NCBI GenBank assembly: GCA_964019415.1
Contig: OZ025882.1
Coordinates: forward strand, 7,282,264-7,346,263
DNA from: Ianthella basta
Taxonomy: Eukaryota; Porifera; Demospongiae; Verongiida; Ianthellidae
Length of the DNA stretch: 64,000 bases
Direction of reading: 5' to 3'
The notes below the pieces were generated by a model, which saw nothing but the letters and a program-made list of their open reading frames with translations, ran no database searches and was not told where the DNA came from. Both the position numbers and the translations under genes were made by a program. Of this stretch, positions 1-43,569 are shown piece by piece. Numbering within the stretch: position 1 is the stretch's first letter; each line of letters begins with the position of its first letter.

Positions 1-3000
1 TGCTATTTCTTGCCTCATCTTGCAATATCTTGCCTCATCTTGCCTCATCTTGCTATTTCTTGTCTCATCTTGCAATATCTTGCCTCATCTTTCTATATCT
101 TGCCTCATCTTGCTATATCTTGCCTCATCTTGCAATATCTTACCTCATCTAACTTCATCTTGCCTCATCTTGCTATTTCTTGCCTCATCTTGCAATATTT
201 TGCTTGCTATTTCGTGCCTCATCTTGCCTCATCTTGCTTAATCTTGCTATATCTTGCCTCATCTTGCCTCATCTTGCTATTACTTGCCTCATCTTGCTAT
301 ATCTTGCATCATCTTGCAATATCTTACCTCATCTAACCTCATCCTGCCTCATCTTGCTATTTCTTGCCTCATTTTGCAATATTTTGCCTCATCTTGCCTC
401 ATCTTGCTATTTCTTGCCTCATCTTGCCTCGTCTTGCTTCATCTTGCTATATCTTGCCTCGTCTTGCCTAATCTTGCTTAATCTTGCTATATCTTGCCTC
501 ATCTTGCCTCATCTTGCTATTTCTTGCCTCAACTTACAATATCTTGATTCATTTTGCCTCATCTTGCTATTTCTTGTCTCATCTAGCAATATCTTGCCTC
601 ATATTGCCTCATCTTGCTATTTCTTGCCTCATCTTGCTATATCTTGCCTCATCTTGCCTCATCTTGCCTCATCTTGCTATTTCTTGTCTCATTTCGCAAT
701 ATCTTGCCTCATCTTGCCTCATCTTGCCTCATCTTGCTATTTCTTGCCTCATCTTGCCTCATCTTGCTCTTTCTTGCCTCATCTTGCAATATCTTGCCTC
801 ATCTAACCTCATCTTGCCTCGTCTTGCTCTTTCTTGCCTCATCTTGCAATATTTTGCCTCATCTTGCCTCATCTTGCTATTTCTTGCCTCATCTTCCCTC
901 ATCTTGCTTCATCTTGCTATATCTTTCCTCATCTTGCCTCATCTTGCGTCATCTTGCTATCTCTTGCCTCATCTTTCCTCATTTTGCTTCATATTGCTAT
1001 ATCTTGCCTCATCTTGCCTCATTTTGCTATATCTTGCCTCAGCTTGCTTCATCTTGCTACATCTCGCTATATCTTGCCATATCTTGCCTCATCTTGCTCT
1101 ATCTCTCCTCATATCTCATCATCTTGCTATATCTTGCCTCATCTTGCTTCATCTTGCTATATCTTGCCTAATCTTGCCTCATCTTGCTATATCTTTCCTC
1201 ATCTTGCCTGATCTTGCTATATCTTGCCTCATCTTGCCTCATCTTGCTATATCTTGCCTCATCTTGCAATATCTTACCTCATCTAACCTCATCTTGCCTC
1301 ATCTTGCTATTTCTTGCCTCATCTTGCAATATTTTGCCTCATCTTGCCTCATCTTGCTATTTCTTGCCTCATCTTGCAATATTTTGCCTCATCGTGCCTC
1401 ATCCTGCCTTATCTTGCTTAATCTTGCTATATCTTGCCTCATCTTGCCTCATCTTGCTATTTCTTGCCTCATCTTGCAATATCTTGCCTCATCTTGCCTC
1501 ATCTTGCTATTTCTTGTTTCATCTTGCAATATCTTGCCTCATCTTGCCTCATCTTGCTATTTCTTGCCTCATCTTGCAATATCTTGCCTCATCTTGCTAT
1601 TTCTTGTCTCATCTTGCAATATCTTGCCTCATCTTGCTTTATCTTGCCTCATCCTTCCTCATCTTGCTATATCTTGCCTCATCTTGCAATATCTTACCTC
1701 ATCTAACCTCATCTTGACTCATCTTGCTATTTCTTGCCTCATCTTGCCTCATCTTTCTTAATCTTGCTATATCTTGCCTCATCTTGCCTCATCTTGCTAT
1801 TTCTTGCCTCATCTTGCAATATCTTGACTCATTTTGCCTCATCTTGCTATTTCTTGTCTCATCTAGCAATATCTTGCCTCATCTTGCCTCATCTTGCTAT
1901 TTCTTGCCTCATCTTGCAATATCTTACCTCATCTAACCTCATCCTGCCTCATCTTGCTATTTCTTGCCTCATTTTGCAATATTTTGCCTCATCTTGCCTC
2001 ATCTTGCTTAATCTTGCTATATCTTGCCTCATCTTGCCTCATCTTGCTATTTCTTGCCTCAACTTACAATATCTTGACTCATTTTGCCTCATCTTGGTAT
2101 TTCTTGTCTCATCTAGCAATATCTTGCCTCATCATGCCTCATCTTGCTATTTCTTGCCTCATCTTGCTATATCTTGCCTCATCTTGCCTCATCTTGCAAT
2201 ATCTTAACTCATCTTGCATCATCTTGCCTCATCTTATTATTTCTTGCCTCATTTTGCAATATCTTGCCTGATCTTTCCACATCTTGCTATTTCTTGCCTC
2301 ATCTTCCTATATCTTGCGTCATCTTGCAATATCTTACCTCATCTAACCTCATCCTGCCTCATCTTGCTATTTCGTGCCTCATCTTGCAATATTTTGCCTC
2401 ATCTTGCCTCATCTTGCTATTTCTTGCCTCATCTTGCCTCATCTTGCTATATCTTGCCTCATCTTGCCTCATTTTGCTTCATCTTGTTATATCTTGCCTC
2501 ATCTTGCCTCATCTTGCTTCATCTTGCTATATCTTGCCTCATCTTGCCTCATCTTGCTATTTCGTGCCTCATCTTGCAATATTTTGCCTCATCTTGACTC
2601 ATCTTGCTATTTCTTGCCTCGTCTTGCCTCATCTTGCTTCAGCTTGCTATATCTTGCCTCATCTTGCCTCATCTTGCTTAATCTTGCTATATCTTGCCTC
2701 ATCTTGCCTCATCTTGCTATTTCTTGCCTCATCTTGCAATATGTTGACTCATTTTGCCTCATCTTGCTTTTTCTTGCCTCATCTTGCAAGATCTTGCCTC
2801 ATCTTGCCTCATCTTGCTATTTCTTGCCTCATCTTGCCTCATCTTGCTGTTTCTCGCCTCATCTTGCTTCTTCTTGCTATATCTTGCCTCATCTTGCAAT
2901 ATCTTGCCTCATCTTGCCTCATCTTGCTATTTCTTGCCTCATCTTGCTTCTTGCTATATGTTGCCTCATCTTGCAATATCTTCCTCATCTTGCCTTATCT

Positions 3001-6000
3001 TGCCTCATCTTGCTATTTCTTGTCTCATTTTGCAATATCTTGCCTCATCTTGCCACATCTTGCTATTTCTTGCCTCATCTTGCTATATCTTGCATCATCT
3101 TGCAATATCTTACCTCATCTAACCTCATCCTGCCTCATCTTGCTATTTCGTGCCTCATCTTGCAATATTTTGCCTCATCTTGCCTCATCTTGCCTCATCT
3201 TGCTATATCTTGCCTCATCTTGCCTCATCTTGCTTCATCTTGCTATATCTTGCCTTATCTTGCCTCATCTTGCTATTTCGTGCCTCATATTGCTATATCT
3301 TGCCTCATCTTGCCTCATCTTGCTTCATCTTGCTATACCTTGCCTCATCTTGCTTCATTTTGCAATATTTTGCCTCATCTTTCTTCATCTTGCAATATCT
3401 TGCCTCATCTTGCGTTATCTTACCTAATCTTGCCTCATCTTGCCTCATCTTGCTATATCTTGCCTCATCTTGCTATTTCTTGCCTCATCTTGCCTCATCT
3501 TGCTTCAGCTTGCTATATCTTGCCTCATCTTGCCTCATCTTGCTTAATCTTGCTATATCTTGCCCCATCTTGCCTCATCTTGCTATTTCTTGCCTCATCT
3601 TGCAATATCTTGACTCATTTTGCCTCATCTTGCTATTTCTTGCCTCATCTTGCAAGATCTTGCCTCATCTTGCCTCATCTTGCCATTTCTTGCCTCATCT
3701 TGCCTCATCTTGCTGTTTCTCGCCTCATCTTGCTTCTTCTTGCTATATCTTGCCTCATCTTGCAATATCTTGCCTCATCTTGCAATATCTTGCAATATCT
3801 TGCCTCATCTTGCAATATCTTGCTCATCTTGCCTCATCTTGCTATTTCTTGCCTCATCTTGCTTCTTGCTATATCTTGCCTCATCTTGTAATATCTTGCT
3901 TCATCTTACCTCATCTTGCTTCTTCTTGCTATATCTAGCCTCATCTTACAATATATTGCCTCATTTTGCCTCATCTTGCTATTTCTTGCCTCATCTTGCA
4001 ATATCTTGACTCATTTTGCCTCATCTTGCTATTTCTTGCCTCATCTTGCAAGATCTTGCCTCATCTTGCCTCATCTTGGTATTTCTTGCCTCATCTTGCA
4101 ATATCTTGCCTCATCTTGCTATTTCTTGCCTCATCTTGCCTCATCTTGCTATTTCTTGCCTCATCTTGCAATATCTTGCCTCATCTTGCCTCATCTTGCT
4201 ATTTCTTGCCTCATCTTGCCTCATCTTGCTATTTCTTGTCTCATCTTGCAATAACTTGCCTCATCTTGCTGTATCTTGCCTCATCTTGCCTCATTTTGCT
4301 CTTTCTTGCCTCATCTTGCTTCTTCTTGCTATATCTTGCCTCATCTTGCAATATCTTGCCTCATCTTGCCTCATCTTGCTATTTCTTGCCTCATCTTGCT
4401 TCTTCTTGCTATATCTTGCCTCAACTTGCTTCTTCTTGCATTTTGCTTCTTGCTATATCTTGCCTCATCTTGCAATAACTTGCCTCATCTTGCCTCATCT
4501 TGCTTCTTCTTGCTATATCTAGCCTCATCTTGCAATATCTTGCCTCATCTTGCCTCATCTTGCTATTTCTTGCCTCATCTTGCAATATCTTGACTCATCT
4601 TGCCTCATCTTGCTATTTCTTGCCTCATCTTGCTATTTCTTGCCTCATCTTGCTTCTTCTTGCTATATCTTGCCTCATCTTGCAATATCTTGCCTCATCT
4701 TGCCTCATCTTGCTATTTCTTGCCTCATCTTGCTTCTTGCTATATCTTGCCTCATCTTGCAATATCTTGCCTGATATTGCCTCATCTTGCTTCTTCTTGC
4801 TATATCTTACCTCATCTTGCAGTATCTTGCCTCATCTTGCTATATCTTGCCTCATCTTGCCTCATCTTGCTATTTCTTGCTTCATCTTGCAATATCTTGC
4901 CTCATCTTGCCTCATCTTGCTTCTTCTTGCTATATATTACCTCATCTTGCAATATCTTTCCTCATCTTGCTTCTTCTTGCTATATCATGCCTCATCTTGC
5001 AGTATCTTGCCTCATCTTGCTTAATCTTGCTATATCTTGCCTCATCATGCCTCATCTTGCTATTTCTTGCCTCATCTTGCAATATCTTGACTCATTTTGC
5101 CTCATCTTGCTATTTCTTGCCTCATCTTACAATATCTTGCCTCATCTTGCCTCATCTTGCTATTTCTTGCCTCTCTTGCCTCATCTTGCTATTTCTTGCC
5201 TCATCTTGCTTCTTCTTGCTATATCTTGCCTCATCTTGCAATATCTTGCCTCATCTTGCCTCATCTTGCTATTTCTTGCCTAATCGTGCTCTTGCTATAT
5301 CTTGCTTCATCTTGCAATATCTTGCCTCATCTTGCTTCTTCTTGCTATATCTTGCCTCATCTTGCAATATCTTGCCTCATCTTGCTCATCTTGCTATTTC
5401 TTACCTCATCTTGCAATATCTTGCCTCATCTTGCTATATATTGCCTCATTTTGCAATATCTTGCTATTTCTTGCCTCATCTTGCTATTTCTGTCCTCATC
5501 TTGCAATATTTCTGTCCTCATCTTGCAATATCTTGCCTCATCTTGCCTCATCTTGCTATATCTTGCCTCATCTTGCCTCATCTTGCTATTTCTTGACTCA
5601 TCTTGCTTCTTCTTGCTATATCTTGCCTCATCTTGCAATATCTTGCTATTTCTTGCCTCATCTTGCAATTTTTTGACTCATTTTACCTCATCTTGCTATT
5701 TCTTGCCTCATCTTGCAGTATCTTGACTCATTTTGCCTCATCTTGCTATATCTTGCCTCATCTTGCAATATCTTGCCTCATCTTGCCTCATCTTGCTATT
5801 TATTGCCTCATCTTGCCTCATCTTGCCTCAATTTGCTATATCTTGCCTCATCTTGCAATATCTTGCTATTTCTTGCCTCATCTTGCAATATCTTGACTAA
5901 TTTTACCTCATCTTGCTATTTCTTGCCTCATCTTGCAATATCTTGCCTCATCTTGCCTCATCTTGCTATTTCTTGCCTCATCTTGCTATTTCTTGCCTCA

Positions 6001-8527
6001 TATTGCCTCAACTTGCTTCATCTTGCTGTATCTTGCTTCATCTTGCCTCATCTTGCTTAATCTTGCCATATCTTGCCTCATCTTGCCTCATCTTGCTATT
6101 TCGTGCCTCATCTTGCAATATCTTGACTCATTTTGCCTCATCTTGCTATATCTTGCCTCATCTAGCCTCATCTTGCTTGATCTTGCTGTATCTTGCCTCA
6201 TCTTGCCTCATCTTGCTATTTCTTGCCTCATCTTGCAATATCTTGACTCATTTTGCCTCCTCTTGCTATTTCTTGCCTCATCTTGCAATATCTTGCCTCA
6301 TCTTGCCTCATCTTGCTATTTCTTGACTCATTTTGCCTCATCTTGCTTCTTCTTGCTATATCTTGCCTCATGTTGCCTCATCTTGCTAGTTCTTTCCTCG
6401 TTTTGCAGTATCTTGCCTCATCTTGCCTTATCTTGCAATATCTTGCCTCATCTTGCCTCATCTTGCAATATCTTGCCTCATCTTGCCTCATCTTGCTATA
6501 TCTTTCCTCATCTTGACTCATCTTGCTTCATCTTGCTTCAACTTGCTATATCATTCCTCATCTTACCTCATCTTGCTTCATCTTCCCTCATCTTGCCTCA
6601 TCTTGCATCATCTTGCAATATCTTGCCTCATCTTGCCTCATCTTGCTATTTCTTGCCTCATCTTGCAATATCTTGCCTCATCTTGCCTCATCTTGCAATA
6701 TCTTGCCTCATCTTGACTCATCTTGACTCATCTTGCTTCATCTTGCTATATCTTACTAAATCTTGCTTCATCTTGCTTAATCTTGCTTCATCTTTCTATA
6801 TCTTTCCTCATCTTGCCTCACCTTGCTTCATTTTGCTTCAACTTGCTATATCTTTCCTCATCTTACCTCATCTTGCTTCATCTTGCTATATCTTGCCTCA
6901 CCTTGCCTCATCTTGCTTCATCTTGCTACATCTCGCCTCATCTTTCTTTGCCTTGCAATATCTTGCCTCATCTTGCCTCATCTTGCTTCATCTTGCTGTA
7001 TCTTGCCTCATCTTGCCTCATCTTGCTTAATCTTGCCATATCTTGCCTCATCTTGCCTCATCTTGCTATTTCTTGCCTCATCTTGCAATATCTTGACTCA
7101 TTTTGCCTCATCTTGCTATATCTTGCCTCTTAATGCAATATCTTGCCTCATTTGCCTCATCTTGCTATTTCTTGCCTCATCTTGCAATATCTTGCCTCAT
7201 CTTGCTTAATCTTGCCTCATCTTGCAATATCTTGCTATTTTTTGCCTCATCTTGCAATAACTTGACTCATTTTCCTCATATTGCTATTTCTTGCCTCATC
7301 TTGCAATGTCTTGGCTCATCTTGCCTCATCTTGCTATTTCTTGCCTCATCTTGCCTCATCTTGCTATTTCTTGCCTCATCTTGCTTCTTCTTGCTATATC
7401 TTGCCTCATCTTACGTAATCTTGTCTCATCTTGCCTCATCTAGCTATTTCTTGCCTCATCTTGCTGCTTGCTATGTCTTGCCTCATCTTGCAATATCTTG
7501 CCTCATCTTGCCTCATCTTGCTTCCTCTTGCTATATCTTGCCTCATCTTGCCTCATCTTGCTATGTCTTACCTCATCTAGCCTCATCTTGCTTAAACTTG
7601 CTATATCTTGCCTCATCTTACCTAATCTTGTCTCATCTTGCCTCATTTTGCTATTTCTTGCCTCATCTTGCTATTTCTTGCCTCATATTGCCTCATCTTG
7701 CTTCATCTTGCTATATCTTGCCTCATCTTGCCTCATCTTGCTTAATCTTGCTTAATCTTGCCATATCTTGTCTCATATTGCTATTTCTTGCCTCATCTTG
7801 CAATATCTTGACTCATTTTGCCTCATCTTGCTATATCTTGCCTCATCTTGCAATTTCTTGCCTCATCTTGCAATATCTTGCTATTTCTTACCTCATCTTG
7901 CAATATCTTGACTCATTTTACTTCATCTTGCTATTTCTTGCCTCATCTTGCAATATCTTGGCTCATCTTGCCTCATCTTGCTATTTCTTGCCTCATCTTG
8001 CCTCATCTTGCTATTTCTTGCCTCATCTTGCTTCTTCTTGCTATATCTTGCCTCATCTTGCAATATCTTGCCTCATCTTGCCTCATCTAGCTATTTCTTG
8101 CCTCATCTTGCTTCTTGCTATATCTTGCCTCATCTTGCAATATCTTGCCTCATCTTGCCTCATCTTGCTTCCTCTGGCTATATCTTGCCTCATCTTGCAG
8201 TATCTTGCCTCATCTTGCTATATCTTGCCTCATCTTGCTATATCTTGCTATTTTTTGCCTCATCTTGCAATATCTTGCCTCATCTTGCCTCATCTTGCTA
8301 TTTCTTGCCTCATCTTGCTTCTTCTTGCTATATCTTGCCTCAACTTGCAATATTTTGCCTCATCTTGCCTCATCTTGCTATTTCTTGCCTCATCTTTCTT
8401 CTTCTTGCTATATCTTGCCTCATCTTGCTTCTTCTTGCTTTTTCTTGCCTCAACTTGCAATATCTTGCCTCATCTTGCCTCATCTTACTATTTCTTGCCT
8501 CATCTTTCTTCTTCTTGCTCTGTCATG
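1..8527 (+). repeat. Satellite A, 10-bp tandem array, segment 1
   Basis: The array is an uninterrupted run of decamers in fixed 10-bp register. The + strand consensus is TGCCTCATCT, interspersed with TGCTATTTCT, TGCTATATCT, TGCAATATCT and TGCTTCATCT. The first four bases (mostly TTGC across the unit border) are the most constant, and the middle varies by class. Occasional decamers are shortened (for example near 2950, 3840, 4735 and 5180), shifting the register. No decamer class contains an in-phase stop on the + strand, so long open frames appear in all three + frames with a 10-residue periodic peptide rich in Leu, Ser, Cys and His. These are repeat artefacts. Nothing else is visible in this stretch. 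Confidence 0.97.
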
Positions 8528-8880
8528 CCTTTGCATGTGGGTTATGTCCTAAGTAAACAATGCGGGCCGATTTTTGTCCTTCGTATTCTTTGCTCTTTAT
8601 CCTGCAGATAGAATCTGCACAAAACAAGCTGTATATGTAATTGAAGCTGCATTCTTGTACTTCAATTCTGCGCAACAAGATTTTCTCTGACGGCTTCCTT
8701 GACGAAGACTCGCTGCCGACAAGAGTACCTATGAAAACGCAGAAAATCGCCGATCGACTTCGTGGGAGAGGCTAAAAGCAAATGAAATTACACAGAACTG
8801 TGCACAATTACATCATCGAAGTTTTCCATGTGACCGCTTTTGATAAACCCATCTGGTGCAGAGTTACATCGCGAAAACTA
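8528..8880. other. Single-copy interruption of satellite A, unclassified
   Basis: About 350 bp with normal base complexity lie between two blocks of decamers. There is no convincing ORF; the open frames that cross it start in the array. Two small inverted repeats are visible: TGCAGAT/ATCTGCA at 8603-8609 and 8613-8619, and AATTGAAG/CTTCAATT at 8639-8646 and 8660-8667. I could not find a clear target-site duplication or TG...CA ends, so the boundaries are accurate only to about 10 bp. It may be an old transposable-element fragment or a remnant of pre-satellite sequence. Confidence 0.6.
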
Positions 8881-10134
8881 AATCTTCCTTAATCTTGCTA
8901 TATCTTGCCTCATCTTGCCTTATCTTGCTATTTCTTGCCTCATCTTGCAATATCTTGACTCATTTTGCCTCATCTTACTATATCTTGTCTCATCTTGCAA
9001 TATCTTGCCTCATCTTGCTATTTCTTGCCTCATCTTGCCTCATCTTGCTTCATCTTGCCTCATCTTGCTATATCTTGCCTCGTCTTGCCTCATCTTGCTT
9101 CATCTTGCTATATCTTGCCTCATCTTTCTTCATCTTGCTATTGCTTGCCTCGTCTTGCCTCATCTTACCTAATCTTGCCTCATCTTTCTGCATCTTGCTT
9201 TATCTTGCCTCATCTTGCAATATCTAACCTCATCTTGCCTCATCTTGCTTCATCTTGCTATATCTTGCCTCATCTTGCTATATCTTGCTTCATCTTGCCT
9301 CATCTTGCTTCATCTTGCTATATCTTGCCTCGTCTTGCCTCATCTTGCTTCATCTTGCTATATCTTGCCTCATCTTGCTTCATCTTGCTATTTCTTGCCT
9401 CGTCTTGCCTCATCTTACCTAATCTTGCCTCATATTGCCTCATCTTGCTATTTCTTGCCTCATCTTGCAATATCTTGCCTCATCTTGCTATTTCTTGCCT
9501 CATCTTGCTTCATCTTGCTATATCTTGCCTCATCTTGCTTCATCTTGCTATTTCTTCCCTCGTCTTGCCTCATCTTACCTAATCTTGCCTCATCTTTCTG
9601 CATCTTGCTTTATCTTGCCTCATCTTGCAATATCTAACCTCATCTTGCGTCATCTTGCTATTTCTTGCCTCATCTTGCCTCATCTTGCTATATCTTGCCT
9701 CATCTTGCTATATCTTGCTTCATCTTGCCTCATCTTGCTTCATCTTGCTATATCTTGCCTCGTCTTGCCTCATCTTGCTTCATCTTGCTATATCTTGCCT
9801 CATCTTGCTTCATCTTGCTATTTCTTGCCTCGTCTTGCCTCATCTTACCTAATCTTGCCTCATATTGCCTCATCTTGCTATTTCTTGCCTCATCTTGCAA
9901 TATCTTGCCTCATCTTGCTATTTCTTGCCTCATCTTGCTTCATCTTGCTATATCTTGCCTCATCTTGCTTCATCTTGCTATTTCTTCCCTCGTCTTGCCT
10001 CATCTTACCTAATCTTGCCTCATCTTTCTGCATCTTGCTTTATCTTGCCTCATCTTGCAATATCTAACCTCATCTTGCGTCATCTTGCTATTTCTTGCCT
10101 CATCTTGCCTCATCTTGCTATATCTTGCCTCGTC
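8881..10134 (+). repeat. Satellite A, 10-bp tandem array, segment 2
   Basis: The same decamer satellite continues in the same polarity. It is enriched in TGCTTCATCT and TGCCTCGTCT variants compared with segment 1. From about 9171 it is organised as a higher-order repeat (separate entry). It ends abruptly at the solo LTR-like insertion. Confidence 0.96.
9171..10134 (+). repeat. Higher-order repeat of 410-430 bp within satellite A
   Basis: A rare variant string TATCTAACCT recurs at 9221, 9631 and 10061, giving spacings of 410 and 430 bp. The decamers around each copy follow almost the same order (CATCTTTCTG, CATCTTGCTT, TATCTTGCCT upstream). The third copy is interrupted by the insertion at 10135, and comparable decamer order resumes after it at 10370. 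Block amplification of about 41-43 decamers therefore acted on satellite A before the insertion. Confidence 0.85.
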
Positions 10135-10369
10135 TGTACGATATGTCGACGACCGGTGGACGATTCTGTTCACTGACAACGTGCCAAGACTGATATCATT
10201 ATACAGAACACGTGCATAAGACAGTTACAAGACAAAGACCATTGTTAGAGGAATAGTAACTACATACAGAATAGCTAGCATTTAACACAACCATAATAGT
10301 AAAGCACTATATCTAGTAACAATCAGTAGTTGGCAGTGTCTAAGTGTTAATCACAGCCAGTATACCACA
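10135..10369. mobile_element. Solo-LTR-like insertion, 235 bp, TG...CA ends, 5-bp target duplication
   Basis: Single-copy sequence begins TGTACGATATG and ends TATACCACA, so it has TGT...ACA termini as LTRs do. It is flanked by the direct repeat TCGTC at 10130-10134 and 10370-10374. Without the insert and one TCGTC copy the satellite reads continuously, as in sister HOR copies (for example near 9751). A 5-bp duplication with TG...CA ends is the classic signature of a long terminal repeat left after LTR-LTR recombination of a Gypsy-, Copia- or BEL-type retrotransposon. A TATA-like CTATATCT lies in the 3' half. There is no coding capacity. The family is not identified, and a non-autonomous TG...CA element is the alternative. 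Confidence 0.78.
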
Positions 10370-12348
10370 TCGTCTTGCCTCATCTTGCTTCATCTTGCTA
10401 TATCTTGCCTCATCTTGCTTCATCTTGCTATTTCTTGCCTCGTCTTGCCTCATCTTACATAATCTTGCCTCATCTTGCCTCATCTTGCTATTTCTTGCCT
10501 CATCTTGCAATATCTTGCCTCATCTTGCTATTTCTTACCTCATTTGCCTCATCTTACCTAATCTTGCCTCATCTTCCTTCATCTTGCTAATTCTTGCCTC
10601 ATCTTGCAATATCTTGCCTCATCTTGCTATATCTTGCCTCATCTTGCTATTTCTTTCCTCATCTTGCCTCATCTTGCTTCATCTTGCTATATCTTGCCTC
10701 ATCTTGCTTAATCTTGCTATATCTTGCCTCATCTTGCCTCATCTTGTTATTTCTTGCCTCATCTTGCAATATCTTGCATCATCTTCCTCATCTTACTATT
10801 TCTTGCCTCATCTTGCAATATGTTGCCTCATCTTGCTATATCTTGCCTCATCTTGCTATTTCTTGCCTCATCTTGCTTTATCTTGCTATATCTTGCCTCA
10901 TCTTGCCTCATCTTGCTTAATCTTGCTATATCTTGCCTCATCTTTCCTCATCTTACTATTATATGCCTCATCTTGCAATATCTTGACTCATTTTGCCTCA
11001 TCTTGCTATATCTTGTCTTATCTTGTAATATCTTGCCTCATCTTGCCACATCTTGCAATTTCTTGCCTCATCTTGCAATATCTTGCCTCATCTTGCTTCA
11101 TCTTGCTATATCTTGCCTCATCTTGCTTCATCTTGCTATATATTACCTCATGTTGCCTCATCTTGCAATATCTTGCCTCATCTTGCCTCATCTTGCTTAA
11201 TCTTGCTATATCTTGCCTCATCTTGACTCATCTTGCTATTTCTTGCCTCATCTTGCAATATCTTGCCTCATCTTGCTTAATCTTGCTATATCTTGCCTCA
11301 TTTTGCCTCATCTTGCAATATCTTGCCTCATCTTTCTCATCTTGCTATTTCTTGCCTCATCTTGCAATATCTTGCATCATCTTCCTCATCTTACTATTTC
11401 TTACCTCATCTTGCAATATGTTGCCTCATCTTGCCTCATCTTGCTTAATCTTGCTATATCTTGCCTCATCTTGCCTCATCTTGCTATTATTGCCTCATCT
11501 TGCAATATCTTGACTCATTTTGCCTCATCTTGCAATTTCTTGACTCATCTTGCAATATCTTGCCTCATCTTGCTTCATCTTGCTATATCTTGCCTGATCT
11601 TGCTTGATCTTGCTTGATCTTGCTATATCTTACCTCATGTTGCCTCATCTTGCAATATCTTGCCTCATCTTGCCTCATCTTGCTTAATCTTGCTATATCT
11701 TGCCTCATCTTGACTCATCTTGCTATTTCTTGCCTCATCTTGCAATATCTTGACTCATCTTGCTATTTCTTTGCTCATCTTACCTCATCTTGCTTAATCT
11801 TGCTATATCTTGCCTCATCTTGCTTGCTTGTATTTTGCTTCATCTTGCTATGTCTTGCCTCATCTTGCTTAACCTTGTTATATCTTGCCTCATCTTGTCT
11901 CATCTTGTTATTTCTTGCCTCATTTTGCAGTATTTTGCCTCATCTTCCTCATCTTGCTATTCCTTGCCTCATCTTGCAATATCTTGCCTCATCTTGCTAT
12001 ATCTTGCCTCATCTTGCTATTTCTTGCCTCATCTTGCCTCATCTTGCTTCATCTTGCTATATCTTGCCTCATCTTGCTTAATCTTGCTATATCTTGCCTC
12101 ATCTTGCTTCATCTTGGTATTTCTTGCCTCATCTTGCAATATCTTGCATCATCTTCAACATCTTACTATTTCTTGCCTCATCTTGCAATATGTTGCCTCA
12201 CCTTGCTATATCTTGCCTCATCTTGCTATTTCTTGCCTCATCTTGCTTCATCTTGCTATATCTTGCCTCATCTTGCCTCATCTTGCTTAATCTTACCTTG
12301 TCATATCTTGCCTCATCTTGCTTAATCTTGCTATATCTTGCCTCATCT
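10370..12348 (+). repeat. Satellite A, 10-bp tandem array, segment 3
   Basis: This is decamer satellite in the same + polarity as segments 1 and 2. It shows more register shifts through short units (for example near 10545, 10790, 11335 and 12150). It ends at the polarity switch centred on 12347. No gene or other element is visible. Confidence 0.96.
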
Positions 12349-12365
12349 TGAGGCAAGAAATAGCA
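12329..12365. repeat. Palindromic junction between satellites A and B
   Basis: A 17-bp arm at 12329-12345 and its reverse complement at 12349-12365 flank a 3-bp centre (TCT), with one mismatch. Left of it all decamers read TGCCTCATCT-type; right of it they read AGATGAGGCA-type, the reverse complement. Only about three A-type decamers follow the switch before the 35-bp B-type pattern (AGATTTGGCA, AGATATGACA, AGGTA) takes over. The junction is therefore both an inversion point and the border between two satellite subfamilies. Confidence 0.93.
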
Positions 12366-15300: not shown

Positions 15301-16790
15301 AGATTTGGCAAGATATGACAAGGTAAGATTAGGCAAGATTTGGCAAGATATGACAAGGTAAGATTAAGCAAGATTTGGCAAGATATGAAAAAGTAAGATT
15401 AGGCAAAATTTGGCAAAATATGACATGGTAAGATTTGGCAAGATTTGGTAAGATATGACAAGGTAAGATTTGGCAAGATTTGGCGAGATATGACAAGGTA
15501 AGATTAGTCAAGATTTGGCAAGATATGAAAAAGTAAGAATAGGCAAGATTTGGCAAAATATGACAACTTAAAGGTAAGGCTTGGCAAGATTTGGCAAGAT
15601 ATGACATGGTAAGATCAGGCAAGATTTGGCAAGATAAGACAAGGTAAGATTTGGCAAGTTTAGGCAAGATATGACAAGGTAAGATTTGGGAAGATTTGGC
15701 AAGATATGACAAGGTAAGATTCGGCAAGATTTGGCAAGATATGACAAGATAAGATTTGGCAAGATTAGGCAAGATATGAAATGGTAAGATTAGGCAAGAT
15801 TTGGTAAGATATGCCAAGGTAAGATTTGGCAAGATTTGGTAAGATATGACAAGGTAATATTTGGCAAGATTTGGCAAGATGTGACAAGATAAGATTTCGC
15901 AAGATTTGGCAACATATGACAAGGTAAGATTAAGCAAGATTTGGTAAGATATGACAAGGTAAGATTTGGCAAGATTTGGCAAGATATTACATGGTAAGAT
16001 TTGGCAAGATTTGGCAAGATATGACAAGGTAAGATTTGGCAAGATTAGGCAAGATATGACAAGGTAAAATTAGGAGAGATTTGGTAAGATATGCTAAGGT
16101 AAGATTTGGCAAGATTTGGCAAGATATGACAAGGTAATATTTGGCAAGATTTGGCAAGATATGACAAAATAAGATTTGGAAAGATTTTGCAAATATGACA
16201 AGGTAAGATTAAGCAAGATTTGGTAAGATATGACAAGGTAAGATTTGGCAAGATTTGGCAAGATATGACAAGGTAAGATTTGGCAAGATTTGGCTTGATA
16301 TGAGAAGGTAAGATTAAGCAAGATTTGGCAAGATATGAAAAAGTAAGATTAGGCAAGATTTGGCAAGAAATTACATGGTAAGATTTGGTAAGATATGACA
16401 AGGTAAGATTAAGCAAGATTTGGCAAGATATGACAAGGTAAGATTAGGCTAGATTTGCAAGATATGACAAGGTAATATTTGGTAAGATTTGGCAAGATAT
16501 GACAAGGTAAGATTAAACAAGTTTAGGCAAGATATGACAAGGTAAGCTTAGGAAAAACTTGGTAAGATATGAAGGTAAGATTTGGCAAGAGTAGGGAAGA
16601 TATGACAAGGTAAGATTTGGCAAGATTTGGCAAGATTTGGCGAGATATGACAAAGTAAGATTTTGCAAGATTTGGCAAGATATGACAAGGTAAGATTAGG
16701 CAAGATTTGGCAAGACATGACAATGTAAGATTTGGCAAGATTTGGCGAGATATGACAAAGTAAGATTTGGCAAGATTTGGCAAGATATAA
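12349..16790 (-). repeat. Satellite B, 35-bp tandem array, segment 1
   Basis: The + strand unit is AGATTTGGCA, AGATTTGGCA, AGATATGACA, then AGGTA (35 bp). There are 25-bp units with one fewer decamer and class variants (AGATTAAGCA, AGATTAGGCA, AGATATGAAA followed by AAGTA). The decamers match the reverse complement of satellite A at AGATnnnGCA, so the array is given - polarity relative to A. The - strand lacks stops in all frames, and the many - strand open frames (35-residue period) are artefacts. The LINE insertion ends this segment. Confidence 0.96.
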
Positions 16791-16816
16791 CTGCATGGCG
16801 CGCAACAAGATGGCGG
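16791..16816 (+). promoter_or_regulatory. LINE 5' end with YY1-type motif CAAGATGGCGG
   Basis: The motif CAAGATGGCGG lies at 16806-16816, that is +16 to +26 of the element. It matches the YY1 site consensus (core AAGATGGCGGC). In human L1 a YY1 site at about +12 to +21 directs transcription to start at the first base of the element. The same motif and spacing here suggest an internal promoter that starts transcription at or near 16791, and that the 5' end is genuine rather than truncated. The ATG inside the motif is also an in-frame candidate ORF1 start. The function is inferred from the motif only. Confidence 0.45.
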
Positions 16817-17748
16817 TCGCCAATGGATTGTTGGCCTATCTCAAAGCTTTTCGCCAACGCGCTGACTATGAGTCAATGCGGAACCAGATCCTGAGTAAGT
16901 ATGATGGTAGCTCAATTCGGGCTGCAAAGGACAATCTGTGGAGAGATTGTAGCACTGATCTGGCGAGATTACAGCTGGAGAAGAAAGTAAGGCGAAGCTC
17001 GTCCACGCGCTCTCAGGAACTGGCTGACCTTGATGATATCATCGAGGCTTTTGATGCGCTAGACAGCGATGCTAGTCTACCGGAGGTCGTTTGTTCTGCG
17101 GAGGACCTCCTACAGATGCCACAGCTTCTCCCACTGCGTGGCACTGAGCAAGTGGCTGAGGATATTCGCGCCTTACGCGCAGATGTCTGCTCTCGTCTCG
17201 AGGGTATTGACAAGCGTCTTCAACTCCCCTTCCCTGCTCCCTCTGTGTCTGAGAATGGGCCCAATACAAATTCGCGTAGTAATTCGGCCCCAAGGCAAGC
17301 TCCTGACACCTACGATCGCAGAAGCAATGTTATTCTCTTTGGCATTCCTGAAGACAAAGATCTTTCAGTTGTCTCGGATGTTCTGCAGGCTGTCGCTGGT
17401 AGCCACATTGCTGTCAAGGACACATTCAGACTGGGCAAACAGTTGAAGAGACCCCAGCAGACAGGAAAACAACAGTCCAACAAGGTCTCTGAAAAGAACC
17501 GCTCAGCGCCAAGCACTCATTCTTCGTGCACATCTGAACCACCCCAACCCAGACCTATTCTCATCAAGCTCAACTGTCCGTGGGACAGGCGACTTATCCT
17601 CGCTGGCAAAAAGCGGCTGTCGAGCATCAATGGAATGGAAAGGTATTTTTTGCAGCCAGACCTTTCAATAGATGAACGCAAAAAACGCAGAGACGCATAT
17701 TTGGCACGGAAAACACCAGCTAGTAGCCCTTTGTCTGATTCGCAATGA
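16795..17748 (+). CDS. LINE ORF1 protein, RRM-like nucleic-acid-binding
   Basis: The frame encodes 317 aa from the ATG at 16795. A second in-frame ATG at 16810 has the better start context (A at -3, G at +4) and would give 312 aa. The frame extends upstream into satellite without an ATG, so 16795 is the first possible start. The N-terminal third (to about residue 120) is charged and probably helical, including KKVRRSSSTR and an acidic stretch. It is followed by a Ser/Pro/Asn-rich linker. From about residue 175 (RRSNVILFGIPED) there is an RRM-like fold with DTFRLGK and, after a basic low-complexity insert, RPILIKLNCPWDRR. The C terminus (PDLSIDERKKRRDAY) is typical of ORF1p of invertebrate CR1/L2-type elements. 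Such proteins coat element RNA and act as nucleic-acid chaperones. I see no zinc knuckle. The stop TGA overlaps the ORF2 ATG. It could be slightly truncated at the N terminus if the element lost 5' sequence. Confidence 0.85.
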   Translation: MARNKMAVANGLLAYLKAFRQRADYESMRNQILSKYDGSSIRAAKDNLWRDCSTDLARLQLEKKVRRSSSTRSQELADLDDIIEAFDALDSDASLPEVVCSAEDLLQMPQLLPLRGTEQVAEDIRALRADVCSRLEGIDKRLQLPFPAPSVSENGPNTNSRSNSAPRQAPDTYDRRSNVILFGIPEDKDLSVVSDVLQAVAGSHIAVKDTFRLGKQLKRPQQTGKQQSNKVSEKNRSAPSTHSSCTSEPPQPRPILIKLNCPWDRRLILAGKKRLSSINGMERYFLQPDLSIDERKKRRDAYLARKTPASSPLSDSQ

Positions 17749-20702
17749 CTGATGACTGTGCGATGTTTGTACAAAAGAAACTCTCAATAGTGTCATTTAA
17801 CTGCCATGGATATAATAACGGTCTCTCATACCTACCTGTTCTTCTTGATTCTTCCGATATTGTCCTGTTACAAGAACACTGGCTCTCAGATTCTGAGCTT
17901 GATAAACTCTGTTTTGATGGTTTTGTCACTCATGCTATATCTGGTTTTGACAACTCTGTACTGCAACATGGGCGTCCTTCTGGAGGCTGCGCTATTCTTT
18001 ATCGTCAATGCTTAATTAACTCTATTAAGCAAGTTAAAACGTCATCTTACCGATATTGTGCTATCAAGATTGGCCTCCGCAATTGCAACTGTCTTTTAGT
18101 AAATGTCTACCTGCCAACTGACTATCGCTCTGATGCTGCCAATGAACAACTCAAAGACACACTTGGGGAACTGTGTGGTCTTATCTCTACAGTATCACAT
18201 GATGTTCTAGTGATTGCTGGAGACTGGAACATGGACACTCGGCGACCATGCAGCTTTACGGACATTGTACAATCTTTTCTTACGGAGTTGGACCTCTCTC
18301 TTGCAGATCTGAATTATGCAAATGAGGTTAGTTTTACATATATGGGTCATAATGGGTCCAAATCATGGATTGATCATGTAGCTGTCTCTAGCTGTTTTCT
18401 CCCATTAGTCAGCAATGTTCATGCAATCAAGGATGGCAGGAATTTATCTGATCATAATCCTTTAGTCTTCTATCTGGACTTGCCATGCACTGTAGCTGAC
18501 CATACATCTTCTACAGTCCCTGAACCAACCACGAGGGCCTGGTACAGAGCCACTATTGATCACTTTGACAAGTACCAGACTACAGTTGAGCACATGCTTG
18601 AGTCTCTGAACATGATGTTGGATGATGCCATTATCACCTGTTGTGACCCAGCCTGCACAGCTCATCAACAACAGCTTGAGCAGGTGTGTGATCAGCTTGT
18701 TAAGTGCCTTAAAGTTGCGGGGAACCGCTCAATCCCAGGCAAAGGCCCTGGCAAACGACCTCGCATTGCTGGGTGGTCACAGTTTGTCAAACCTGAACTA
18801 CAGGCTAGCCAGTGGTGGCATAAGCTGTGGCTTGAGGCCGGTTCCCCTTCTGCTGGTGTTCTGTTTCAGCTTAAAAAGCATTACCACCGCAGATACAAAT
18901 ACGCTGTACGACGTGTCAGGAGAAGACAAGATCAGATCAAACGTACAAAATTGGCTGAGTCGTTGCTCAAAGATCCCAATCGTGGTTTCTGGTCTGAAGT
19001 GCATCGACACTTTGGTAACAGCAAAGCTACTCCATCTCCAGTTGTTGATAGTGTTACTGGGTCTGACAATATTGCCAATCTGTTTGCCAATAGTTTTAAA
19101 CAACTGTACAACTCCACAGACTCTTCCGCCGCTGAAGAACTGCTGGATAATCTTAATTCAGCTCTAACTTCAGCAGAGATTGAGCACATTTCTATATCAC
19201 CTGATACAATCCATGAGGCCATTGGGAAGCTTAGGCATGGTAAGATTGGTGGTGACACATTGGCTTCAGACCATATTCTGAACGCACCTGCCTCATTACA
19301 TCAGTTTCTGGCTCGTCTGTTTACAACACTACTGAGACATGGCTTCATGCCAACTGCACTGCGAGATGCCACCATTCAGCCTATTCCAAAAGGCTCTAAA
19401 GATCCTTCCCACTCTGCAAACTATCGTGGAATAGCCCTTGCTTCCTCCCTAAGCAAAGTCCTAGAGTGGTCCATTCTGATTACCTGGAATGAATTCTTTA
19501 TCACGAGTGATTTACAATTTGGCTTCAAATCTGGCTTTTCTACTACCCTTTGTACTGGTGTCATGAAATCTGTTATCAATCGCTACTTGAATAAAGGTTC
19601 TAAAGTGTATGCTTGCTTGATTGATGCCTCAAAAGCCTTTGACACAGTTGACCACGGCATCCTGTTTTCGAAATTGCTTGAAAGAAGAATGCCCAAGCCT
19701 ATTGTACGTCTGTTATTGCAGTGGTACAAGTCTCAGAAATTGTGTGTTCGATGGTTGGGTAAATCCTCTGACCACTTTGAGGTCTCCAATGGGGTTCGCC
19801 AAGGCGGTGTCCTTAGCCCAATATTGTTCACAATTTATCTTGATGGCCTGCTAGATTCACTTCGTACTAGTGGTCGTGGCTGTTACTGGGAGGATCACTT
19901 CTCCGGGGCTTTTTGCTATGCCGATGATCTAACCATTCTTGCTCCATCCCCAGATGCCCTTAGAAAGATGCTTGCCCTATGTGAACAATATGCTCAGGCT
20001 CATGGGATTCAATTCAATGCTGATAAGACTCAACTTATATGTTTTAGACGTACTGCAGGTTCTGATCATACCCGCTTCTCACTCTGTGGCCACTGCCTGC
20101 CTATGGTTGATTCAGTCATTCACCTTGGGAATACTTTGCAGTATGACTTGTCTGATAAGCTGGATATTCATTTAAAATCAATGGCATTTATCCGCCAGGC
20201 TAACTCTGTCCTGTTTCGATTTAAGGGGTGTAATCCGGAGACAAAGATGAAACTATTCAATGCATACTGTCTTTCACTGTATGGGTGCGCATTGTGGAGG
20301 CTCGATGCCCCAGACATCCGATCTCTTCATGTGTCGTTTAACAATGTTATCAGACGAATTTGGAATCTTCCACACAATTGCCATACGTCTATTGCCCATG
20401 CTGTTGGATTTACTAAAAGCATTTACAACATCATTTATTCCAGATTTATCAGACTACTTTCCACTGCATTATCTCACTCATCTAGTTTCATTCGTTCTGT
20501 TTTTCATGAAAGTTCTTTAGTATGTAATTCAGGTTTTATAGGGTACAACTGTATGTTTGGTCCTTCTCATTGTAAATCTTATTCCACCGATCATGTTGCT
20601 GTGGGTCATCTAATTAGAGAGATCCGAGATACTCACTCTGTAATTCCCCATTTTGCTCAGTCAGAATTAGACTTTATTGTATCCTCAGCCTCTACCATGT
20701 AA
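17745..20702 (+). CDS. LINE ORF2 protein: endonuclease and reverse transcriptase
   Basis: 985 aa, intact. Residues about 13-246 form an exonuclease-endonuclease-phosphatase (APE-type) domain: SFNCHG (Asn19), LLQEHW (Glu44), AGDWN (Asp160, Asn162), SWIDHV (about 208-212) and SDHNP (Asp236, His237), so the usual catalytic residues are present. A basic linker (about 320-410) follows. The reverse transcriptase spans about 480-770: IPKG, NYRGIAL, QFGFKSGFST, LIDASKAFDTVDH (catalytic Asp627), NGVRQGGVLSPILF and FCYADD (Asp727, Asp728). The C-terminal region (about 835-985) has LYGCALW and the IRRIWNLPHNCHT segment seen in CR1/L2-type elements. There is no RNase H. The enzyme nicks target DNA and primes cDNA synthesis from element RNA. 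The start ATG at 17745 overlaps the ORF1 stop as ATGA, suggesting coupled termination-reinitiation. Opposite-strand frames here are shadows. Confidence 0.96.
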   Translation: MTDDCAMFVQKKLSIVSFNCHGYNNGLSYLPVLLDSSDIVLLQEHWLSDSELDKLCFDGFVTHAISGFDNSVLQHGRPSGGCAILYRQCLINSIKQVKTSSYRYCAIKIGLRNCNCLLVNVYLPTDYRSDAANEQLKDTLGELCGLISTVSHDVLVIAGDWNMDTRRPCSFTDIVQSFLTELDLSLADLNYANEVSFTYMGHNGSKSWIDHVAVSSCFLPLVSNVHAIKDGRNLSDHNPLVFYLDLPCTVADHTSSTVPEPTTRAWYRATIDHFDKYQTTVEHMLESLNMMLDDAIITCCDPACTAHQQQLEQVCDQLVKCLKVAGNRSIPGKGPGKRPRIAGWSQFVKPELQASQWWHKLWLEAGSPSAGVLFQLKKHYHRRYKYAVRRVRRRQDQIKRTKLAESLLKDPNRGFWSEVHRHFGNSKATPSPVVDSVTGSDNIANLFANSFKQLYNSTDSSAAEELLDNLNSALTSAEIEHISISPDTIHEAIGKLRHGKIGGDTLASDHILNAPASLHQFLARLFTTLLRHGFMPTALRDATIQPIPKGSKDPSHSANYRGIALASSLSKVLEWSILITWNEFFITSDLQFGFKSGFSTTLCTGVMKSVINRYLNKGSKVYACLIDASKAFDTVDHGILFSKLLERRMPKPIVRLLLQWYKSQKLCVRWLGKSSDHFEVSNGVRQGGVLSPILFTIYLDGLLDSLRTSGRGCYWEDHFSGAFCYADDLTILAPSPDALRKMLALCEQYAQAHGIQFNADKTQLICFRRTAGSDHTRFSLCGHCLPMVDSVIHLGNTLQYDLSDKLDIHLKSMAFIRQANSVLFRFKGCNPETKMKLFNAYCLSLYGCALWRLDAPDIRSLHVSFNNVIRRIWNLPHNCHTSIAHAVGFTKSIYNIIYSRFIRLLSTALSHSSSFIRSVFHESSLVCNSGFIGYNCMFGPSHCKSYSTDHVAVGHLIREIRDTHSVIPHFAQSELDFIVSSASTM

Positions 20703-41270: not shown

Positions 41271-41711
41271 AAGATTAGGCAAGATTTGGCAAGATATGAC
41301 AAGGTAATATTTGGTAAGATTTGGCAAGATATGACAAGGTAAGATTAAGCAAGATTAGGCAAGCTATGACAAGGTAAGTTTAGGTAAAATTTGGTAAGAT
41401 ATGAAGGTAAGATTTGGCAAGAGTAGGCAAGATATGACAAGGTAAGATTTGGCAAGATTTGGCAAGATTTGGCGAGATATGACAAAGTAAGATTTAGCAA
41501 GATTTGGCAAGATATGACAAGGTAAGATTAAGCAACATTTGGCAAGATATGAAAAAGTAAGATTTGGCAAGATTTGGCAAGATATGATAAGTTAAAGGTA
41601 AAACTTGGCAAGATTTGGCAAGATATGACAAGGTAAGATCAGGCAAGATTTGGCAAGATATGACAAGGTAAGATTTGGCAAGATTAGGTAAGATATGACA
41701 AGGTAATATTT
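41271..41711 (-). repeat. Satellite B, segment 4
   Basis: A 441-bp stretch of 35-bp satellite lies between the two fold-back insertions and belongs to HOR block 2. Nothing else is visible. Confidence 0.95.
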
Positions 41712-42154
41712 GTTCAAAAGTGACTCTTGCAGTTAGGCCCCTGCAAAGGCTAGGTTTGTTGCTTGAAGGATCACTGGGTTTACGCCACCAACCAACTACA
41801 CCAGTATTGGTGTTACAGTTGGTTGGGAGGTCCAAAAGGCCCTATTAAGTTGGTAAGTTGGCAACCAGTGATTCCCTTCCCCCTAACATCCTACAAAGAT
41901 GGAAGAGCCACAGACAGCTGTTTCGCCCTAATTGGGGCTCATCAGTGTGGCGTACTGATGGTAATAGGATGAATGCCACTTCCATATGTATCCACCACAA
42001 GCTAAAACACTTGTGGTTTCAACACATAGAAGCAGCATAAAATTAGGGGGAAGCCTCAGCCAAAAAGACGGCTGGAGTCAGGGTTGTTCAAAAGTGACTC
42101 TTGATGTTAGGCCCCTGCAAAGGCTAGGTTTGTTCCTTGAAGGATCACTGGGTT
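41711..42154 (+). repeat. 374-bp direct-repeat unit inside the fold-back element
   Basis: TGTTCAAAAGTGACTCTTG begins copies at 41711 and 42085. Each copy runs 70 bp with three differences, ending TCACTGGGTT. Copy 1 continues into the left arm. Copy 2 instead switches at 42155-42156 to the reverse complement of the arm. The structure therefore reads as one full 374-bp unit, the start of a second, then an inverted unit. Confidence 0.85.
41907..41951 (-). ncRNA. Hammerhead self-cleaving ribozyme (left arm, - strand)
   Basis: Read on the - strand, 45 nt: GCCACA (stem I 5' side, 41946-41951), CTGATGA, GCCC-CAATTA-GGGC (stem II), GAAA, then CAGCTGT forming a short self-complementary stem III. C17 comes next (GTC cleavage triplet), then TGTGGC (stem I 3' side, 41907-41912). 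Every invariant core base is present, stem I pairs 6/6 and stem II 4/4. The very short stem III, with ACAGCTGT and no real loop, is typical of type I hammerheads of Penelope-like elements and retrozymes. These usually work as dimers. Confidence 0.87.
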
Positions 42155-42172
42155 ACCTATTACCATCAGTAC

Positions 42173-42217
42173 GCCACACTGATGAGCCCCAATTAGGGCG
42201 AAACAGCTGTCTGTGGC
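42173..42217 (+). ncRNA. Hammerhead self-cleaving ribozyme (right arm, + strand)
   Basis: Stem I 5' side GCCACA is at 42173-42178, CTGATGA at 42179-42185, and stem II GCCC/GGGC at 42186-42189 and 42196-42199 with loop CAATTA. GAAA is at 42200-42203, stem III is the palindrome ACAGCTGT (42203-42210), and C17 is at 42211. Stem I 3' side TGTGGC is at 42212-42217. Cleavage is expected after C42211. It is identical in all 45 positions to the - strand copy in the left arm. Confidence 0.87.
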
Positions 42218-43569
42218 TCTTCCATCTTTGTAGGATGTTAGGGGGAAGGGAATCACTGGTTGCCAACATACCAACTTAATAGGGCCTTTTGGGCCTCCCA
42301 ACCAACTGTAACACCAATACTGGTGTAGTTGGTTGGTGGCGTAAACCCAGTGATCCTTCAAGCAAAAAAGGTAATATTTGGCATGATTTGGCAAGATATG
42401 ACAAGATAAGATTTGGCAAGATTTGGCAAGATATGAAGGTAAGATTATAAGCAAGATTTGGTAAGATATGACAAGGTAAGAATTGGAAAGATTAGGTAAG
42501 ATATGACAAGGTAAGATTTACCAAGATTTGGCTAGATATGACAAGGTAAGATTAAGCAAGATTTGGTAAGATATGAAAAAGTAAGATTAGGCAAGATTTG
42601 GCAAAATATGACATGGTAAGATTTGGCAAGATTTGGCAAGATATGACAAGGTAAGATTTGGCAAGATTTGGCAAGATACGACAAGGTAAGATTAGGCAAG
42701 ATTTGGCAAGATATGACAATGTAAGATTTGGCAAGATTTGGTGAGATATGACAAGGTAAGATTTGGCAAGATTTGGCAAGATATGACAAGGTAAGATTAG
42801 GCAAGATTTGGCAAGATATGACAAGGTAAGATTAGTCAAGATTTGGCAAGATATGAAAAAGTAAGAATAGGCAAGATTTGGCCAGATATGACAACTTTAA
42901 GGTAAGGCTTGGCAAGATTTGGCAAGATATGACAAGGTAAGATCAGGCAAGATTTGGCAAGATATGACAACGTAAGATTTGGCAAGATTTGGCAAGACAT
43001 GACAAGGTAAGATTTGGCAAGATTTGGCAAGATATGACAAGGTAAGATTCGGCAAGATTTGGCAAGATATGACAAATTGATAGTAAGATTGGCAAGATTA
43101 GGCAAGATATGACAAGGTAAGATTAGGCAAGATTTGGTAAGATATGCCAAGGTAAGAGTTGGCAAGATTTGGCATGATATGACAAGGTAATATTTGGCAA
43201 GATTCGGCAAGATATGACAAGATTAGATTTGGCAAGATTGAGCAAGATATGACAAGGTAAGATTAGGCAAGATTTGGCAAGATATGACATGTTAAGATTT
43301 GGCAAGATTTGTCAAGATATGACAAGGTAAGATTAAGCAAGATTTGGCAGGATATGAAAAAGTATCATTAGGCAAGATTTGGTAAGATATTACATGGTAA
43401 GATTTGGCAAGATTTGGCAAGATATGACAAGGTAAGATTTGGCAAGATTTGGCAAGATATGACAAGGTAAGATTTGGCAAGATTTGGCAAGATATGACAA
43501 GGTAAGATTAGGCAAGATTTGGCAAGATATGACAAGGTAATATTTGGTAAGATTTGGCAAGATATGACA

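What the first reader, a model, noticed from the sequence alone, without database searches (positions are those of the whole stretch)
41712..42367. Divergent pair of complete hammerhead ribozymes in a young fold-back element
Both 208-bp arms encode the same 45-nt hammerhead with full core, 6-bp stem I, 4-bp stem II and a self-complementary ACAGCTGT stem III. Because the arms are inverted, one ribozyme is on each strand: 41907-41951 (-) and 42173-42217 (+). Transcription in either direction would give one active-strand ribozyme plus its antisense. The arms are nearly identical, so the structure is recent or kept alike by conversion. Hammerheads with short stem III are known from Penelope-like elements and retrozymes; a head-to-head fold-back form embedded in satellite is unusual.
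Basis: partly seen in the sequence, partly recalled or inferred. Interest (0 to 1): 0.85.

Follow-up and report, generated by a model that had tools for sequence, protein, structure and literature searches.

The report
Two-way ribozyme retroelements copied Penelope-style
A tiny non-coding mobile element carrying a self-cutting ribozyme is repeatedly found in this animal genome as two back-to-back copies, and the way the two copies begin follows the same pattern as Penelope-type retrotransposons in the same genome, pointing to the machinery that may move animal retrozymes.

Summary
In detail: both hammerheads reach Rfam's cut-off (40.1 bits each), one per strand, in a fold-back element of about 655 bp. 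It is not a one-off. The element is one insertion of a dispersed 374-nt animal retrozyme family. In 26 of 26 two-armed insertions with both ends readable, the arms diverge, one arm begins at monomer position about 203 and the other at about 157 (never two alike), the inner junction varies, and direct repeats of 8 to 16 bp flank the whole structure. A second retrozyme family (70% identical) does the same in 19 of 19 insertions with both ends classifiable, of 25. In the same genome, Penelope-like elements (RT plus GIY-YIG) insert the same way: 26 of 26 classifiable pairs, of 29, have one 'tail' end and one 'no-tail' end. Best explanation: a Penelope-type enzyme cuts both target strands and reverse transcribes retrozyme RNA from two fixed start sites, one per strand; tandem units arise by reading round the RNA, probably a circle. 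The parts are known separately; new here, as far as my searches show, are the Penelope signature on animal retrozymes and the one-site-per-strand rule. No assay was possible; partner element and circularity are inferred.

The parts
41700..41712 (.). left copy of the 13-bp direct repeat (candidate target-site duplication)
   Evidence: weak on its own because this 13-mer occurs 72 times in the window; the 25 other two-armed insertions also have a direct repeat of at least 8 bp
41710..42154 (-). left arm, ribozyme sense on the minus strand, 445 nt = 1.19 units, from monomer position m203 back through one full turn to m133; its first 3 nt overlap the direct repeat
41907..41951 (-). type I hammerhead ribozyme, cleavage predicted between 41913 and 41912
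42084..42087 (-). internal copy of the m203 start region, where the second tandem unit begins
   Evidence: 374-nt spacing
42155..42155 (.). inner junction between the two arms (1 nt not assigned)
42156..42369 (+). right arm, ribozyme sense on the plus strand, 214 nt = 0.57 units, monomer m319 to m158; its last 2 nt overlap the direct repeat
42173..42217 (+). type I hammerhead ribozyme, cleavage predicted after C42211
42368..42380 (.). right copy of the 13-bp direct repeat

Best explanation
The feature is a single insertion of a non-autonomous, non-coding animal retrozyme (374-nt monomer). Inferred cycle: genomic copies are transcribed; the hammerhead cuts the transcript to unit length and the unit is probably circularised; a Penelope-type protein (reverse transcriptase plus GIY-YIG nuclease) binds retrozyme RNA, cuts both target strands roughly 8-16 bp apart (5-12 bp if ambiguous bases are given to the RNA), and each exposed 3' end primes reverse transcription at its own fixed site, one at about m203 and the other at about m157, helped by a few nucleotides of pairing between target end and RNA. 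The two DNA copies run back through part of a turn or several turns of the RNA, stop at variable points, and are joined to each other, giving divergent arms, variable inner junctions and a target duplication. Shown here: geometry, paired fixed end points, direct repeats, agreement of arms within an insertion, and the same geometry in Penelope elements of this genome. Inferred: enzyme identity, circular template, order of steps.
For: 26 of 26 two-armed insertions of family rz1 have one arm starting near m203 (200-205) and the other near m157 (149-162); 52 of 52 outer ends but 8 of 52 inner ends lie within 8 nt of these two points, chance 9%. All 26 are divergent and have a direct repeat of 8-16 bp around the whole structure. 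Family rz2 (70% identical): 25 of 25 two-orientation clusters divergent, 19 of 19 with both ends classifiable use one of each site; the decayed copy L056, whose visible matches end alike, also has unequal arms once its 12-bp direct repeat is found. Penelope-like elements here (RVT_1 + GIY-YIG): 29 of 29 two-orientation clusters divergent, 26 of 26 classifiable use one tail and one no-tail end; two read in full have 14-bp repeats and perfectly complementary arms. Copies within an insertion agree (598 of 624 at variable columns, 358 expected). Arms reach 3.19 units. Target/RNA microhomology averages 2.41 nt (22 of 26 scorable) and 1.64 nt (25 of 26) against a two-sided chance of 0.68 and 0.73. 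In vitro a Penelope protein cleaves and extends both strands and starts internally at two adjacent sites (PMC11167929).
Against: No significant sequence match links this retrozyme with the two Penelope elements compared (best match 12 nt, E 0.25), so the actual partner is unknown. The template could be a linear multimer. The in vitro study reports no difference of start site between strands and says the start site is not homologous to the cut DNA (PMC11167929), whereas here each insertion uses one of each site and shows short matches. 9 of 36 annotated rz1 insertions have one arm only and 3 of those 9 have no direct repeat detected. 6 of 25 rz2 and 3 of 29 Penelope clusters had an end that could not be classified; one Penelope cluster (C6:6204839-6205144) has both matches ending at similar places (411 and 419) and may be an exception. 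End classes for rz2 and Penelope were set after seeing the listings. The surveys are capped lists that favour close relatives. No RNA or protein assay was possible.
Confidence: 0.8

Rival explanations
1. Self-priming: one DNA copy folds back on itself and copies itself, as proposed for Penelope head-to-head repeats on an antisense template (PMC3846280).
For: Head-to-head order; 5 of 26 inner junctions lie within 16 nt of mirror symmetry against 2.3 expected; 8 of 26 inner junctions show at least 5 nt overlap.
Against: A folded-back copy should end where the first copy began, yet 26 of 26 have different start sites. Either arm may be the longer (203-arm longer in 16 of 26). 21 of 26 inner-end pairs are 33 nt or more from mirror symmetry.
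Confidence: 0.07
2. Ordinary LINE machinery with twin priming moved the retrozyme.
For: A LINE with two long ORFs sits in the window; LINE twin priming also makes inverted pieces (recalled knowledge).
Against: In LINE twin priming the second strand lands at varied internal points (recalled); here both outer ends are fixed and paired. The pattern equals that of Penelope elements in the same genome.
Confidence: 0.06
3. An inherited palindrome or fold-back DNA transposon, or satellite amplification, multiplied an existing head-to-head unit.
For: Some copies are later duplications: the other end of contig C15 (99.4% over 2501 bp), L032/L033 (flanks), and an array with a higher-order period on C22.
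Against: Arm lengths run from 71 to 1194 nt, no two of the 26 insertions share both inner ends, and each has its own flanking repeat.
Confidence: 0.04
4. Same Penelope-type mechanism, but the template is a linear multimeric transcript, not an RNA circle.
For: Longest arm is 3.19 units, within reach of a linear multimer; hammerhead cleavage was not needed for Penelope insertion in vitro (PMC11167929).
Against: Units within an insertion agree better than units of different insertions, and animal retrozymes are known as abundant circles (PMC7229834), but both facts also fit a multimer of identical units.
Confidence: 0.3

Closest known systems
Animal non-LTR retrozymes with type I hammerheads (Cervera and de la Pena 2020, PMC7229834)
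   Same: Type I hammerhead, unit of 374 nt (known range about 170-400), tandem units, GC below 50%, non-coding, strongly self-paired circle predicted, target duplications longer than 4 bp.
   Different: 'Inverted' and 'head-to-head' occur 0 times in that paper's main text; most insertions annotated here are divergent with two fixed start sites.
Penelope-like retrotransposons with GIY-YIG nuclease (PMC3846280, PMC11167929)
   Same: Head-to-head arms, short target duplications, an extra 'tail' on one arm only, internal start of reverse transcription at two neighbouring sites, extension of both target strands, hammerhead upstream of the start sites.
   Different: The retrozyme encodes no RT or nuclease; its two sites are about 46 nt apart (about 30-35 in the two Penelope families here); no significant sequence match to the two Penelope elements compared.
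Plant LTR retrozymes (PMC4918200, search listing only)
   Same: Non-autonomous hammerhead elements proposed to spread through circular RNA.
   Different: Type III hammerheads in LTRs and 4-bp target duplications (as stated in PMC7229834) and priming by Gypsy-type reverse transcriptases (as stated in PMC7761336).

Membership tests
animal non-LTR retrozyme | type I hammerhead ribozyme | tested here: met
   RF00163, two hits of 40.1 bits
animal non-LTR retrozyme | tandem units of about 170-400 nt, GC below 50% | tested here: met
   374 nt, GC 47%; arms of 0.19-3.19 units
animal non-LTR retrozyme | non-coding | tested here: met
   longest ORF overlapping the element is 115 aa (bacterial start codons allowed) and runs into the satellite; no protein search was made with it
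animal non-LTR retrozyme | target-site duplication longer than 4 bp | tested here: met
   direct repeat of 8-16 bp in 26 of 26 two-armed and 6 of 9 one-armed copies; random placements gave 8 bp or more in 100 of 720
animal non-LTR retrozyme | strongly self-paired circular RNA | tested here: met
   prediction only: circular MFE -148.3 against mean -94.9 (sd 5.5) for 50 mononucleotide shuffles
animal non-LTR retrozyme | expression as circular RNA | not testable with these tools
   no RNA data
animal non-LTR retrozyme | animal host | tested here: met
   Wnt family (PF00110) matches, best E 1.8e-66; that Wnt is animal-specific is recalled
Penelope-like element | RT plus GIY-YIG protein encoded | tested here: not met
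   no ORF of that size in the element; so it is at most a non-autonomous user of that machinery
Penelope-like element | head-to-head insertion with tail on one arm and short target duplication | tested here: met
   26 of 26 for rz1; 19 of 19 classifiable for rz2, ends only
fold-back DNA transposon | inherited inverted-repeat structure with constant interior | tested here: not met
   no two of the 26 insertions share both inner ends; arm lengths 71-1194 nt

The most novel reading that the evidence does not exclude
Penelope-type integration is two-headed: one complex, probably a protein dimer, loads a single RNA circle and copies it at the same time from two sites about 46 nt apart, each site reserved for one cut target strand. 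Animal retrozymes are minimal templates that keep little more than the hammerhead and these two start sites, and a typical new insertion is therefore born as a pair of opposed ribozymes, able to be transcribed into active ribozyme from either direction.
Probability: 0.45. Interest if true: 0.86.

Novelty: new variant of a known kind. Interest (0 to 1): 0.74.

Why it matters
[quoted passage not shown] The paired end points give such a sign without needing sequence similarity, and can be looked for in any animal genome with retrozymes. The same data suggest a rule for Penelope integration, one start site per target strand, that would explain the optional 'tail' and the head-to-head order, for which self-priming on an antisense template had been proposed (PMC3846280, passages). 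Both can be tested in vitro with the assay already published for the anole element (PMC11167929).

Tried and rejected
Sequence similarity between the retrozyme and the two Penelope loci: nothing significant; a shared TGAAC near the second start site was seen by eye and is treated as chance. A stem-loop common to the start regions of retrozymes and Penelope elements: linear folds gave no one consistent structure, so not claimed. Hybrid insertions (one retrozyme arm, one Penelope arm) were sought by comparing the fetched loci with four Penelope loci: five matches, none joined to a retrozyme arm; the nearest, 77 bp at 75%, lies 35 bp outside the arm of L030. Arm nesting as a test of self-priming was uninformative because any arm over one unit contains everything (23 of 26 contained). 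Lower variation in the hammerhead than elsewhere was not seen (0.0213 against 0.0188), so no claim of selection on the ribozyme is made. The first microhomology control (0.36 and 0.35) was one-sided; a two-sided control (0.68 and 0.73) replaced it. L056 looked like an exception, both matches ending near m140; a wider look found a 12-bp direct repeat that places its ends about 13 and 66 nt further out, so unequal. The mismatch between arms of L021 lies at its inner junction by my reading and was not pursued. Literature: searches listed 20 of 48, 20 of 52, 20 of 22, 4 of 4, 11 of 12, 8 of 8, 20 of 22 and 3 of 3 papers; no listed title or abstract start described divergent animal retrozymes or a one-site-per-strand rule. 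Only open-licence PMC papers are held, and the 2014 Penelope-hammerhead paper was not held.

Full report
Check of the finding. The two arms match over 214 bp with 3 mismatches. The window belongs to a 209-Mb genome with Wnt genes, hence an animal; it ends 52 kb from the end of a 7.4-Mb contig.

Anatomy. Numbering the unit in ribozyme sense from the predicted cleavage site (m1 to m374), the element is a minus-strand arm of 445 nt that starts at m203 and runs back 1.19 units to m133, and a plus-strand arm of 214 nt that starts at m158 and runs back to m319, joined with one unassigned base. A 13-bp direct repeat flanks it, 41700-41712 and 42368-42380. This alone is weak evidence, since the 13-mer occurs 72 times in the window.

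The family. A search with the element gave 277 matches, with 40 of 827 candidates scored and 150 or so rows listed, so counts are lower bounds and favour close relatives. From the places listed I fetched 36 dispersed loci (L009-L044), dropped L033 as a duplicate of L032, and added the window, giving 36 annotated insertions. Twenty-six are two-armed with both outer ends readable, one (L036) is two-armed but cut by a run of N and was left out, nine have one arm. Not counted: the mirror-image second insertion in L020, the window's copy at the other end of C15, the array on C22, and two places seen only and not fetched (C9:6354775, C19:2717677).

The rule. In 26 of 26 two-armed insertions the ribozyme-sense strands point outwards, one arm starts near m203 (range 200-205) and the other near m157 (149-162). 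All 52 outer ends but only 8 of 52 inner ends are within 8 nt of these points; 9% is expected by chance. If each arm chose freely and equally between the sites, 26 mixed pairs of 26 would have a probability of about 1.5e-8 (own arithmetic). Arm lengths run from 71 to 1194 nt and no two of the 26 share both inner ends. Direct repeats of 8-16 bp flank all 26 and 6 of 9 one-armed copies; random placements in the same loci gave 8 bp or more in 100 of 720, a figure probably raised by the satellite loci.

Second family. Other hammerhead hits (loci) led to rz2, a 368-nt unit 70% identical to the first. Among 40 clusters of a capped genome listing (40 of 937 candidates scored), 25 have both orientations, all 25 divergent; 19 have both ends classifiable and all 19 use one site of each kind; 6 have an end that could not be classified. 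At least two of the 19 look like later duplicates of others (identical ends: C12/C6 and C1/C9), leaving about 17 independent. Around the copies read in full, direct repeats were found for L050 (15 bp), L051 (15), L053 and L054 (14), L064 (8) and L059 (9); L053, L054 and L064 are duplicates of one insertion. L049 gave only a 7-bp match, and none was found for L052, L056 and L057. L056 was looked at again because its two matches both end near m140: a 12-bp direct repeat further out puts its ends 13 and 66 nt beyond the matches, so it too is unequal.

Penelope elements in the same genome. GIY-YIG matches often occur as divergent pairs. Two loci read in full encode RVT_1 and GIY-YIG domains, have perfectly complementary arms of 1393 and 1880 nt, 14-bp direct repeats, and one arm about 30-35 nt longer than the other. 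In capped genome listings for these two families (40 of 240 and 40 of 362 candidates scored), 29 of 29 two-orientation clusters are divergent; 26 of 26 with both ends classifiable have one long and one short end; 3 could not be classified, one of which (C6:6204839-6205144) has both matches ending at similar places and may be an exception. One C10 pair is a likely duplicate of another. Clusters were joined over up to about 3.5 kb, so a few (on C4 and C23) may merge neighbours; the end classes were set after seeing the listings. 33 Penelope clusters and 15 rz2 clusters show one orientation only. A hammerhead-like stretch lies upstream of the start sites in both loci by my reading, but Rfam did not report it at its threshold.

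Template. At 8 columns that vary between insertions, units within an insertion agree in 598 of 624 comparisons against 358 expected, and between arms in 360 of 377. Overall difference is 1.07% within an arm, 1.11% between arms, 2.43% between insertions; a few old copies (L014, L026) differ as much within as between. So both arms were most likely copied from the same RNA or from identical ones. Arms pass the cleavage site without a break, with up to 3.19 units in one arm, as expected from a circle or an uncut multimer. The unit is predicted to be strongly self-paired as a circle.

Priming. Target ends match the RNA at the start sites by a mean of 2.41 nt (m203 side, 22 of 26 scorable) and 1.64 nt (m157 side, 25 of 26) against 0.68 and 0.73 in a two-sided control from random flanking positions; 0 of 5000 resamples reached either value.

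Comparison with print. Animal retrozymes are described in PMC7229834 (parts 1-3 of 6 read, and a term search over the main text), where 'inverted' and 'head-to-head' do not occur. PMC7761336 (passages) says their repeats show no motif that could tell which autonomous element moves them. PMC11167929 (parts 1 and 2 of 4) shows in vitro that a Penelope protein cuts and extends both strands and starts internally at two adjacent sites, explaining the tail; it saw no strand difference in start site. PMC3846280 (passages) describes head-to-head Penelope copies with an optional tail on one inverted repeat and proposes self-priming. Self-priming predicts equal outer ends, which is not met in 26 of 26 insertions here. 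PMC8490949 (passages) reports hammerheads in schistosome satellite-like elements, without this architecture in the passages seen. PMC12910113 (passages) added nothing on Penelope ends.

Verdict. An animal retrozyme that integrates like a Penelope element. The enzyme's identity, the circular template and simultaneous copying are inferred. The result bears on two open points, the machinery of animal retrozymes and the strand rule of Penelope integration, and both can be tested directly.

Noticed in passing
window 16777-20702: LINE inside the satellite: a 323-aa ORF followed by a 985-aa ORF with endonuclease/exonuclease/phosphatase and RT domains, no stop inside either.
   Followed up: partly
window 1-12350 and 12384-63995: The short satellite changes strand near 12.35 kb; base skews flip there.
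   Followed up: no
G000 C15:69337-70017 and window 41700-42380: Both ends of contig C15 carry the same insertion in opposite orientation; 2501 bp around it are 99.4% identical, suggesting exchange between chromosome ends.
   Followed up: partly
L046-L048 (C22:2907000-2934500): A long retrozyme array, about 81-93% like the window element, with a 2047-bp higher-order period and an inverted copy of part of itself: a retrozyme turned satellite.
   Followed up: partly
L067 379: A further GIY-YIG locus with a hammerhead-like core downstream; the GIY-YIG list suggests more Penelope families.
   Followed up: no
rz1 monomer m126-150 and inner ends: Inner ends seem to cluster near m131-149 and m48-58 (by eye), and variation is highest at m126-150; perhaps reverse transcription halts at the strong hairpin m88-130.
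   Followed up: no
L053, L054, L064 on C19: Three copies of one rz2 insertion with the same inner junction and matching or overlapping flanking repeats, within about 165 kb: local duplication after insertion.
   Followed up: no
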